NCBI GenBank assembly: GCA_018881555.1
Contig: JACAXG010000094.1
Span: 186,001-250,000 of the forward strand
Source of the DNA: Amblyornis subalaris
Lineage: Eukaryota; Chordata; Aves; Passeriformes; Ptilonorhynchidae
Length of the DNA: 64,000 bases
Direction: 5' to 3'
Positions 34,756 to 48,741 of this stretch are shown here, one piece after another. Every line of letters begins with the position of its first letter. Positions within the stretch are counted from its first letter, which is position 1. The position numbers were made by a program, and so were the translations under genes. Below the pieces are notes generated by a model. The model saw only the letters and a program-made list of their open reading frames with translations, did no database searches and was not told the DNA's origin.

Positions 34756-34836
34756 CTGATCCTGAGAAATTGTCTAAAGACCCGTCTGTGGTAGTAGTAG
34801 TAGCAATCTCACCGCTGTTCATTGGTTCTGTTTTAA
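34756..34836 (-). CDS. EYA1: EYA1 exon E4, Thr-rich segment
   Basis: 81 bp, phase 1 to 1, residues 42-68 starting with the shared Val: VKTEPMNSGEIATTTTTDGS and LDNFSGS. VKTEP is a sumoylation-type psi-K-x-E-P site also present in EYA4 (motif reading, not proof). The five Thr codons include a short (ACT)n run, a small coding microsatellite that could vary in length. The acceptor is tctgtag|TT after a good pyrimidine tract and the donor TCAG|gtaagg. The exon is frame-symmetric, so in-frame skipping is possible. Confidence 0.96.
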
Positions 34837-37845: not shown

Positions 37846-40800
37846 AAGTGGATGTAAATGCTTCACTTGCCATTTTGATTTAAAAGCCTACTTCATGGGC
37901 CTTTGCACCTATTTGGATCCCTCAAGATATCATTTTTAGAAAAACCCCATAAAAATGGAATTTCTGTCTCTCTGACTAATGAGCAATACTTCAGTGCAAC
38001 ATAGTTTATAACTGAAGGCTGTTTACTACACATACTACTTTTTAAGATACAGGAAAACATATGAAATGCAATGCATGCCTTCTTCATGGCAATGAATTCT
38101 AGTTGCTGACTGAGGTGCTCACAAATTTTCCATAAAAACTTTATGTCTTCTCTCACAGCTGTTGGATCTCCTGAATATAAGAAAAACAGGGTATAAGAAA
38201 GGATGTTCCCATTATTCCTGATCTGGATACCCATTACTTGGGTGATAATAAATATGCCCTATCATGCTGTTTTTATAAACAACCATGACCATAATGAAGA
38301 TGGATAGGTACTAAAAAGCTCTCCATTCCCCAAGCACTTTAATCAAAATGCCTGAAAATTACTGCCTATATCCTTCTATCGGCCTAAGTATATTTCAAGA
38401 GGATGCAATCTTGCTATACAAAGAAATAAACTGAGAAGAACAGCCATGGGTTTACCTGTTGGAAATATTTACCACGTGTATTCTTACTGCAAAGGAAGGT
38501 CTCTCATTTGTCCAAGGCAAAAACTNACCTGCAATGGAGCATATTTCACCCCAGAATCCTGGGGAAAGAGAGCTGCAAAGGGACTGCCTAAGGATTACAT
38601 GGGTAATCCATGTCTGTCATGAGAGACATATGGAGTAGTCCGAGGAAGCCAGGCTTTGGACGGGCACGGATCTGGCCCTGCCACATGCTACTTAAGCGTG
38701 CTCTGGATTTCAGCTCTTCACATTTCCCATGACAATTAACATTTCTGCAACGTCCTAAGCTTTCACAAGATGACACTGGGAAATGAGTGAGAATATTGCC
38801 ACATCTAGAAAGCACACATTGCATGCTTGCCAGTAACTGCCAACACCATGCTCAGTTGTGGCAGAAACCATGGAAACTGACACAGGAAAGTTCCCATTTC
38901 TGCTGCTCTTTTACCAAAACTGACCTTTGCAGAGGTGCAGAATGATCAGACTTGAATTCTAGAGACAGACTCTGATGTAGCAATGGACTACTAAGTTTTA
39001 GTGCCACCGAAATCACTCATGTAATAAAACAGATTATCAATAAGAAGTTCAAGAAGAAGACAAATGTCTCTTAATCTGCTGCAAAAATTCAGTGTTTACT
39101 TAGAACTAGTGATTTAGATTTGGTTTATACACCAAGGAGCTTAAGAAAGTGTGTCAATAAAGAAATATTTTGCCTGCTTATTTTTCTTTTCTAGTCATTT
39201 GTGAGATTCTAAAAAGATTTTAAAAGAAACTGTGTAAGAAAACAACACAACAGAACAACAGGAAAAATGGGAGTAGCAGATAATAACACAAATGCTAGCT
39301 TGGAGAAAAAAGCATAAAAATTCAGAGATATCATAACTGCTGATCTAATGTTATATTGATTGTCAAGATAATTCTTCTTAAGACACTCAGAGACTGCAAA
39401 TGCAATGTGCCCTGTTTTGTCAGCTGCATACAAAAGGTGGTTAAAAAATTACTTACATGGCAGTTTCTGAACTCCACTGAGAGAGGGAACTTCAGACCAG
39501 AACCCACAAGTTCACGTGGTTCATTGGCCAAGTAACAACTTTCTGAGTTCACAGCTTGTCATGCAGTTCCTGGTATATGCATCACTGAAGAGTGTTATGA
39601 GGAAAGAGATGTTGGCTATTTTAAATATGGATTTAGAGACCTAATATTTAGCCACTCCTAACATAGAAGTTGTAGGAATACCTCATAAAGATNGCACCTT
39701 GAAGCATGCAAAAAGTAAGGTTCTTAAACATCTTTTTAAAATCGTTTTTATTATCTAAAATACATATAAGGCTTGCCCTACTGAACATGCTTTGTTAACA
39801 GCTATGCCATATACATTAAATCAGAACAGAAACATTGCAAACACGGCTGACTTATTAAATTGGTTTTAATTTTCAGTTTTAAGATTCAATTAACACTATA
39901 ATGTTATGTTTTTTGTATTACACAAACAAGTGGGCAAAATTAAATTATTCCTGCTGACAGCTCTCAGTTTTCATGGGCTACAGAGTCTCAACAAAGTAAG
40001 TGTGGTGGTTGGGTTGTTTACAGACATACATAAGAACACAGTATCTTGCCCTATTTTGGTTTGTCTGAAAGTGACATCTTCAAATAACATTAGCAGCTAA
40101 ACACTGGGTAAATCTTGATTAACTACTTTATGTATCCATTACTATTCACACAGTTTTGCTTGATACCATCCTCTCTCTGTACCCACTAGAAGCCCAAAGC
40201 TCACCTGGAAGTGTAAAGATAATTTTCACTAACAACGAGACAAAAATTCTACCTTGAACCTCTATGCTGATGATATTTTCCATTATTTTATTCAAACACT
40301 CCTCTGTTTGCAGTGAAGAATCTTGCAATTATAAAAAGGTTACTAAAGGTTACAGGTTGCTCAATTATACTAATTCCTATCCAGGATATTATTCTTTTTA
40401 TCACAGATTATCAAATCATCAGCTCCTGACCATGAAGCCCTATAAACTTACTTGTTACTGCTTCTCAAAGCAGGGAACTCTCCCTGAATCTCATCGTCTG
40501 GAAACTACCAGAAGGTAATTTCCAGCCTAAATTTATGTTTAGTTTTCAAAGAAAGTCCCTGCTCAAAGCAGCACATTCTAGTTCAAGTACAGACTGTTTC
40601 CTGCTCTCCCCTCCTCTGATGTGAGAAGCTTCAAAACTTCTCCAGTATTTGGGCTGTGGCTAACACTTTGCTTTCACCACATACACCTCCATGACCCTCA
40701 TCTTCCTCTTATGTATTACAGGTGAAAGAGCTTTTTTACTGCTCATCTAGCAGTAAAACCCTCAAATTTGTGAAGAAATGGTGTCATTGCCACAGTACAA

Positions 40801-43800: not shown

Positions 43801-45342
43801 TGTTGTTACTGTTCCTTTAACTCCTTCAGTATCAACCCACTATGGCAATTCACTGACAAAGGAAGATTAGAGATAAGGCATGACTATGAACATTTTGATC
43901 CCTATTTCAAAGATCTTTTTAAAGAGATTTTCTTAGGCAAGTCATACAGGGCCATAATTTTTATGGTGTCCAGTGTCAGCTCTTTTGAACAATAGAGGGT
44001 ATTTCGTGGAAATACCCTTAAACAGAACATGGAAACCTCAAATACTGTAGTATTTATATAATCAGCACCACCTCGGCATACTAGGACTGCTTTTTCTGAG
44101 TGCCTTTAGCCAGACATTTTAGTGTTACTCCTCTGCATTTGATCCTGGGAAATTTCTGTCTGGCCAAGCTCTATAATTTCCTTGTTACTTCCCCATCAGT
44201 GAAGACCATACTGCCTGGCCAAGAGAAAAATTTTGCTCTATTAAAGCGAAATTAAGCACACAAAGAGATATTATATATAAGCTGCATGCAGAGATTAAAC
44301 TAAGAGTCAATCGCACAACTAAATTCCCATTCCGTGCTTTGAAAACTTACAGCTAAGTGTGAAGTTAAAAACATTAGCTAACAAAGTGAGCTATCTTCCA
44401 ACCACATCCTCTTGCAGAACAACATCAATAGAAGACAAGTCTGAAAATGTGCCTTAGAGGAATTAATGAACATTTGTTTGAAATGCAGCCATTTCACTTT
44501 GGGACAGGTATTTTTTTTCTTCTTCTTTTTTTCTTCCCCTCCCCCTCATCTAGTGAACATATCCTGTGCTTCAGGGTATGGAAACCTGTCAAAATCACAC
44601 CCATAGTCAAATCAAATTTAACATATCTTTACAAGATATTTATAACATGCAAATACCTAGAGGCCTTGCTTCTCGGTCACATGAAGATCCCTTATGCCAG
44701 AGAAGGTGGGCTCTTTCATGTTAGTGAGAATGTGTGCATGGTAGACTACAAGCTGGTTTCACATACCATATTTGACATGTGAAGATTCAACAACCCACAT
44801 CTCCACTCCACGTGCAACAAGCAAGCAAACCACACTGCAGCATTTTAAAAGAGGTGTTCGGCGAGCCCTTATGACCGCATCCTTACAATCAGCCACTTGT
44901 GTCTCAGCAGGATTCTGCTTCAAGAATCTCAAAAAAAATAATTTTACTTCACTCTTCATTAAAAAAAAATAAGAAACTATTGCTTCATTCACTCCACTTT
45001 TTCTTAAGTCTCTTTAGTAGCTCAAGGAGCCTAACAAAACATTTTCTCAAGATAAAACAGATTAGCAGCAAAAATTCCACCTTCAGATTCTTAGGCATCT
45101 GCTTCACTCACAAATTCTGTCCCTTGGCACACATCTCATTCAGAAATAAATTATTCTACTGGTTTCTTTAAAAAACTTTTCCTTATTTGTCACTTAAGAG
45201 CAATCAGAGACAGGAATTTTCAAATTAGAAAGCTTAGACTGGAACCGCCAAGCACAAGCTATTTCTTGGGACACTTTTGGAACAACATCTGAAAACGCAT
45301 GCTGAGTGCCCACGCCTGCTGCGCCCACTGCAGCACCCAAAC

Positions 45343-45405
45343 CTGCAGGGCTCTGTGTGCTAGGGCTGAGCAACCAGTCTGCAGTGCTGAGGAGGGTCAT
45401 GTCAC
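45343..45405 (-). CDS. EYA1: Probable alternative EYA1 exon (E3b), EYA4-like TADWLLS peptide
   Basis: Between E3 and E4 the minus strand has a strong acceptor (ccttttccctcag|GTGAC), a 63-bp open frame and a GT donor (CTGCAG|gtttgg). With the G left over from E3 it reads GDMTLLSTADWLLSPSTQSP then A, and leaves one G for the Val codon of E4. It is therefore phase 1 to 1 and can be included or skipped freely. The core MTxLxTADWLLS, as I remember EYA4 (ENMTVLNTADWLLS), lies at exactly the same place in that paralogue, just before VKTEP. The EYA1 protein as I remember it lacks it. The donor is weak at +3, +4 and +6, so inclusion may be low or tissue-specific. Alternatively it is a decaying relic of the ancestral exon, but the intact frame and pyrimidine tract argue against that. 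Confidence 0.78.

Positions 45406-48741
<3,336 letters not shown>

What the first reader, a model, noticed from the sequence alone, without database searches (positions are those of the whole stretch)
45343..45405. Hidden EYA1 exon matching the EYA4 TADWLLS exon
A 63-bp minus-strand segment between E3 and E4 has a strong acceptor, an intact frame and exact phase 1-1 compatibility. It encodes GDMTLLSTADWLLSPSTQSP then A, collinear with the EYA4 peptide that precedes VKTEP. Standard EYA1 proteins, as I remember them, lack it. It suggests that the common EYA1/EYA4 ancestor had this exon and that this lineage keeps it as an optional, weak-donor (gtttgg) cassette in the transactivation region. Conservation of a Trp/Leu-rich motif in an otherwise low-complexity region hints at a protein-binding site.
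Basis: partly seen in the sequence, partly recalled or inferred. Interest (0 to 1): 0.82.

Follow-up and report, generated by a model that had tools for sequence, protein, structure and literature searches.

The report
Optional EYA1 exon shared with EYA4
The 63-base segment is a genuine optional exon of the developmental gene EYA1, already present in predicted EYA1 proteins from sharks to birds and matched by an exon of its sister gene EYA4; none of the mammalian EYA1 proteins examined carries it, so it is neither hidden nor peculiar to this bird.

Summary
Window 45343-45405 (minus) is a phase 1-1, 63-nt exon between EYA1 exons E3 and E4, encoding (G)DMTLLSTADWLLSPSTQSPA. It is not hidden: all 130 EYA1 proteins listed by two searches carry TADW, in sharks, sturgeons, gar, teleosts, coelacanth, frogs, a turtle, squamates and birds. 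The closest listed protein, parrot Pezoporus flaviventris (P0015), has the identical exon peptide. Three 607-residue fish-like proteins sit on contigs of 2.3-3.7 kb, so they presumably come from spliced RNA. The same genome has the paralogous EYA4 exon: 69 nt, same phases, 42 of 63 aligned bases identical. With human flanks plus the cassette as query, no named mammal appeared in the best 120. Without the cassette, 0 of the best 120, 111 of them mammalian, had it. Best reading: an old optional cassette, present before jawed vertebrates diverged, shared by EYA1 and EYA4, and absent or unannotated in therian EYA1. It inserts a Trp/Leu motif directly before VKTEP, whose lysine is SUMO site K43. 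What the peptide does is inferred, not shown.

The parts
45343..45405 (-). EYA1 cassette exon, 63 nt, phase 1-1, encodes (G)DMTLLSTADWLLSPSTQSPA
   Evidence: splice sites and frame; identical insert in 28 listed EYA1 proteins
45406..45435 (-). acceptor and polypyrimidine tract (19 of 21 pyrimidines at -25..-5)
45325..45342 (-). 18 intronic nt after the donor; read through they give GLGAAV, as in the Aphelocoma and Cinclus models; the following dinucleotide here is GC
47207..47330 (-). upstream coding exon E3 from the MEMQDL methionine to NGTE and the phase-1 G; donor AAG|gtgagc
   Evidence: tblastn with recalled human EYA1, splice site
34756..34836 (-). downstream exon E4, begins (G)TT AAA ACA GAA = VKTEP, the SUMO consensus containing K43 (human numbering)
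   Evidence: K43 position in P0131 and P0152; SUMO1 at K43/K146 from a review passage

Best explanation
It is an ancient optional cassette exon of EYA1, paralogous to the EYA4 TADWLLS exon. Shown: exon anatomy, matching phases in both paralogues of this genome, presence in EYA1 protein models from sharks to birds, and models with and without it in two lizards. Inferred: three fish-like contigs are spliced RNA; inclusion, set by a good acceptor and a mediocre donor, adds a 21-residue Trp/Leu motif (22-23 in listed fishes and frogs) to the N-terminal transactivation region just before the VKTE SUMO site (K43 in human numbering). I think the motif most likely acts as a short linear docking site for a coactivator, or modulates SUMO-dependent repression (about 0.4 for this functional step alone; the stated confidence is for the exon's identity, age and paralogy). 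Therian mammals appear to have lost it from EYA1 while EYA4 keeps it; retention in mammalian EYA4 is recalled, not tested.
For: Two searches whose queries contained the cassette each listed their best 120, of 337 and of 794 matches. Together they gave 130 EYA1 proteins (often several isoforms per species), all with TADW. Insert length differs by whole residues (21 in listed amniotes, 22 in listed fishes, sharks and frogs, 23 in Latimeria, longer variants aside) and the N-terminal half varies less than the C-terminal half, as expected of a coding exon. P0082, P0083 and P0084 are 607-residue proteins on contigs of 2,276, 2,553 and 3,727 bases, 100%, 99.8% and 100% identical to listed Cyprinus carpio, Danio rerio and Siphateles proteins; the EYA1 exons in this window alone span about 45 kb, so these contigs look spliced. 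EYA4 in this genome: exon L003:1502-1570, 69 nt, phase 1-1, 42 of 63 aligned bases identical. Skip forms: 120 of 120 listed. Both E3 and the cassette end in G, so the V of VKTEP is kept in either isoform. SUMO1 at K43 and K146 lowers Eya1 transcriptional activity (review passage, PMC11155398).
Against: No RNA reads from this bird were available. Most protein models look like automatic predictions and may not be independent of one another. The database is clustered at 90% identity and one mammalian cluster (P0152) has 1018 members, so a cassette-bearing mammalian isoform could be hidden inside it. The EYA4 query over the whole genome found EYA4's two exons and EYA1's E4 but did not list the EYA1 cassette, and the EYA1 cassette query did not list the EYA4 exon; paralogy therefore rests on the direct alignment and the window scan. 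No functional test of the peptide exists here.
Confidence: 0.9

Rival explanations
1. A decayed relic exon, or a conserved non-coding element in the intron that automatic annotation mistakes for an exon.
For: Mediocre donor, 6 of 9 consensus positions. Absent from the mammalian EYA1 proteins seen. Some models extend past the donor.
Against: Frame and the TADW core are kept in models from sharks to birds, with whole-residue length changes and less variation in the N-terminal half. Three fish-like contigs of 2.3-3.7 kb join it to both neighbours in a 607-residue protein.
Confidence: 0.06
2. A lineage-specific exon kept only in this bird group, as the finding implies.
For: The 111 mammalian EYA1 proteins listed lack it.
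Against: Annotated in sharks, sturgeons, gar, teleosts, coelacanth, frogs, a turtle, squamates and many birds.
Confidence: 0.01
3. Independent gain in EYA1 and EYA4 rather than common ancestry.
For: The C-terminal halves of the two peptides are unalike; whole-genome queries with one exon did not list the other.
Against: Same position before the KTEP exon, same phases, 27 of 36 identical bases over the MTLLSTADWLLS core, and an extra residue (GDNMT) shared by this genome's EYA4 with shark and some frog EYA1.
Confidence: 0.03

Closest known systems
EYA1 isoforms with the cassette, e.g. P0015 Pezoporus flaviventris, Taeniopygia guttata X2 (P0027), Danio rerio X5-X8
   Same: same exon at the same place; the peptide is identical to the window's in 28 listed proteins, P0015 among them
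   Different: Taeniopygia differs in the last residue (T for A); Danio has one residue more and a different tail (GDNITMLTTADWLLSSSSQSAA)
EYA4 TADWLLS exon (this genome, L003:1502-1570)
   Same: phase 1-1, position before the KTEP exon, core M-T-x-L-x-TADWLLS
   Different: 69 nt instead of 63; different C-terminal half; the MSLLA that follows in the recalled human protein is encoded here at the start of the next exon, at an acceptor 15 nt upstream of the VKTEP one; which acceptor this bird uses was not tested
Mammalian EYA1 (human P0131-P0135 and others)
   Same: same flanks NGTE / VKTEP
   Different: no insert: 0 of the 111 mammalian proteins listed

Membership tests
EYA1 cassette exon (EYA1/EYA4 TADWLLS exon family) | lies between the NGTE exon and the VKTEP exon of an EYA gene | tested here: met
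EYA1 cassette exon (EYA1/EYA4 TADWLLS exon family) | symmetric phase 1-1 with AG acceptor and GT donor | tested here: met
EYA1 cassette exon (EYA1/EYA4 TADWLLS exon family) | peptide with the TADW core, like EYA1 proteins elsewhere | tested here: met
   130 of 130 listed cassette proteins contain TADW, a set found by similarity to the cassette; exact insert in 28
EYA1 cassette exon (EYA1/EYA4 TADWLLS exon family) | paralogous exon in EYA4 of the same genome | tested here: met
EYA1 cassette exon (EYA1/EYA4 TADWLLS exon family) | inclusion and skipping in RNA of this species | not testable with these tools
   no RNA data held; both forms are annotated in Podarcis muralis and P. raffonei
Protein-docking transactivation motif | binds a partner or changes transactivation | not testable with these tools
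   inference from conservation only. In P0015 the one Pfam match overlapping the cassette is far below its cut-off (Rab3-GTPase_cat, residues 70-106, E 0.21, 11.7 bits against 26.1), and the cassette peptide matched no solved structure at E up to 10

The most novel reading that the evidence does not exclude
A regulatory peptide of EYA1, conserved for the whole history of jawed vertebrates, was lost from EYA1 in therian mammals but kept in EYA4. In other vertebrates its splicing switches coactivator docking or SUMO repression at K43, so work on mouse and human EYA1 has missed a layer of control.
Probability: 0.3. Interest if true: 0.55.

Novelty: already known. Interest (0 to 1): 0.3.

Why it matters
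EYA1 and EYA4 are deafness genes (branchio-oto-renal syndrome and DFNA10; titles and abstracts), and much of what is known of them comes from mammals (general knowledge). If mammalian EYA1 lacks a peptide that other jawed vertebrates use, results from chick, frog and zebrafish EYA1 may not carry over directly, and the bordering SUMO site gives a concrete place to test this. The exon itself is ordinary and already annotated.

Tried and rejected
I first thought that the six extra residues in some EYA1 models (as if from a donor 18 nt downstream) matched EYA4's TMSLLA. The EYA4 DNA of this genome shows MSLLA encoded at the start of the next exon, so I dropped that. I looked for an 18-nt microexon in the window's intron that would explain the other six-residue variants: the kea form VVSPLR was not found, and SMVLAV occurs at 38852 (minus) but without AG/GT flanks, which may be chance. 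The cassette peptide matched no solved structure.

I wanted to test whether EYA3 has a divergent counterpart; six attempts did not complete, so nothing is claimed. No DNA from other vertebrates was available, so synonymous versus non-synonymous change was not measured. Invariance of L and TADW within the 26 distinct 19-residue cores is by construction, because the extraction pattern required them; the separate count is 130 of 130 with TADW, itself biased because the proteins were found by similarity to the cassette. Literature: ten searches, one of them for the string TADWLL (0 papers), and passages seen by 'find' in nine papers. No passage seen describes the EYA1 exon; no paper was read whole, and subscription papers are mostly not held.

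Full report
What is there. A recalled human EYA1 protein places the exons in order from E3 at 47330 down to 2365, about 45 kb. The encoded 403 residues are closest, at 99.0%, to EYA1 of the parrot Pezoporus flaviventris (P0015), with falcon proteins at 98.8% (lineage). It is a bird, perhaps a parrot; the margin is slight. Between E3 and E4 lies the reported segment, 45343-45405, with acceptor ttttccctcag|GTGACATG and donor CCTGCAG|gtttgg. Phase 1 on both sides gives NGTE-GDMTLLSTADWLLSPSTQSPA-VKTEP.

Chance. The segment is the best ungapped match in the whole window to the shark, zebrafish and recalled EYA4 peptides, at scores 71, 67 and 63, against maxima of 38, 45 and 42 in 100 shuffles. The acceptor is good (19 of 21 pyrimidines). 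The donor is middling rather than exceptional: U1 duplex energy -6.9, against -4.0 to -11.9 for the seven others scored of ten in the window.

Not hidden. A search with the spliced window protein, scored on residues 30-85, gave 337 matches, best 120 listed. A second search with human flanks around the cassette gave 794, best 120 listed. Together these show 130 proteins, several of them isoforms of one species, all with TADW. They come from sharks (Heptranchias, Pristiophorus), sturgeons, gar, many teleosts including Danio rerio X5-X8, Latimeria, frogs, Chelonia, lizards and snakes, and many birds. The exact 21-residue insert occurs in 28. The exon is thus already in public annotation; the 'isoform X' names suggest automatic prediction.

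Spliced RNA. Three proteins without names (P0082-P0084) are 607 residues long on contigs of 2,276, 2,553 and 3,727 bases. Their best matches in the held set are Cyprinus carpio (100%), Danio rerio (99.8%) and Siphateles (100%) EYA1. With EYA1 exons spread over about 45 kb in this window, such short contigs look spliced, and they include the cassette. That they are transcript assemblies is my inference; the tool does not explain the source label 'lgn'.

Mammals and skipping. In one search a mammalian EYA1 with the exon should have ranked high, because the flanks were human; no named mammal was among the 120 listed. A control without the cassette (best 120 of 472 listed) returned 111 mammalian proteins (placentals and one marsupial, Sarcophilus) and nine from other tetrapods. 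None of the 120 has TADW: 119 join NGTE directly to VKTEP, and the one left unparsed, P0222, also joins directly but reads VKIEP. The nine others include Podarcis muralis and P. raffonei, which also have cassette models, so the exon is optional there. Caveats: clustering at 90% identity can hide an isoform (cluster P0152 stands for 1018 sequences), and no monotreme was seen.

Paralogy with EYA4. The same genome carries the EYA4 exon at L003:1502-1570 with acceptor ttctcag and donor CAA|gtatgaga, 69 nt, phase 1-1, reading GDNMTVLNTADWLLSCSTPSSAT. Aligned with the EYA1 exon, 42 of 63 bases are identical; over the twelve-codon core it is 27 of 36. Same position and phases, plus the extra residue that EYA4 shares with fish and frog EYA1 (GDNMT here and in sharks and some frogs; GDN, GDS or GDT in others), support one ancestral exon before the EYA1/EYA4 split, with a one-codon loss in amniote EYA1. 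Against: the whole-genome query with the EYA4 peptide did not list the EYA1 cassette, nor the EYA1 query the EYA4 exon. I put this down to the tool's loose first look, since the direct comparisons are clear.

Likely working. EYA N-terminal regions hold a P/S/T-rich transactivation domain (PMC5849647, passages). The cassette adds a short conserved MTLLSTADWLL motif and a more variable tail. It sits directly before VKTEP; that lysine is residue 43 in P0131 and P0152, and a review states that SUMO1 at K43 and K146 hampers Eya1 transcriptional activity (PMC11155398, passage). Both E3 and the cassette end in G, so the valine of the SUMO consensus survives either splice choice. A docking motif next to a repressive modification site is the most economical reading, but it is inferred; no Pfam family passes its cut-off over the segment.

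Odd detail. Of 129 cassette proteins parsed, nine (eight species) carry exactly six extra residues before KTEP; P0075 has five extra, P0118 thirteen and P0088 one. GLGAAV in Aphelocoma and Cinclus equals a read-through of the window's own intron for 18 nt, but the window has GC, not GT, there. Other versions are not explained.

Verdict. The interesting point left is the apparent absence from therian EYA1 of a peptide conserved elsewhere in jawed vertebrates.

Noticed in passing
45325-45342 (minus) and models P0046, P0049-P0054, P0056, P0073: Nine EYA1 models from eight species carry exactly six extra residues after the cassette; two equal an 18-nt read-through of this window's intron, the rest are unexplained.
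   Followed up: partly
L002 (EYA4, downstream exon): EYA4's KTEP exon has two possible acceptors 15 nt apart in frame (tatgtag|TGTCTCTTCTTGCAG|TCAAAAC), so MSLLA may be optional in EYA4.
   Followed up: no
38852 (minus): The intron between cassette and E4 encodes SMVLAV, as in the Ammospiza six-residue variant, but without splice-site dinucleotides.
   Followed up: partly
9815 and at least 49 other positions: Single isolated Ns are scattered through the window, one in EYA1 exon E10; they look like ambiguous base calls.
   Followed up: no
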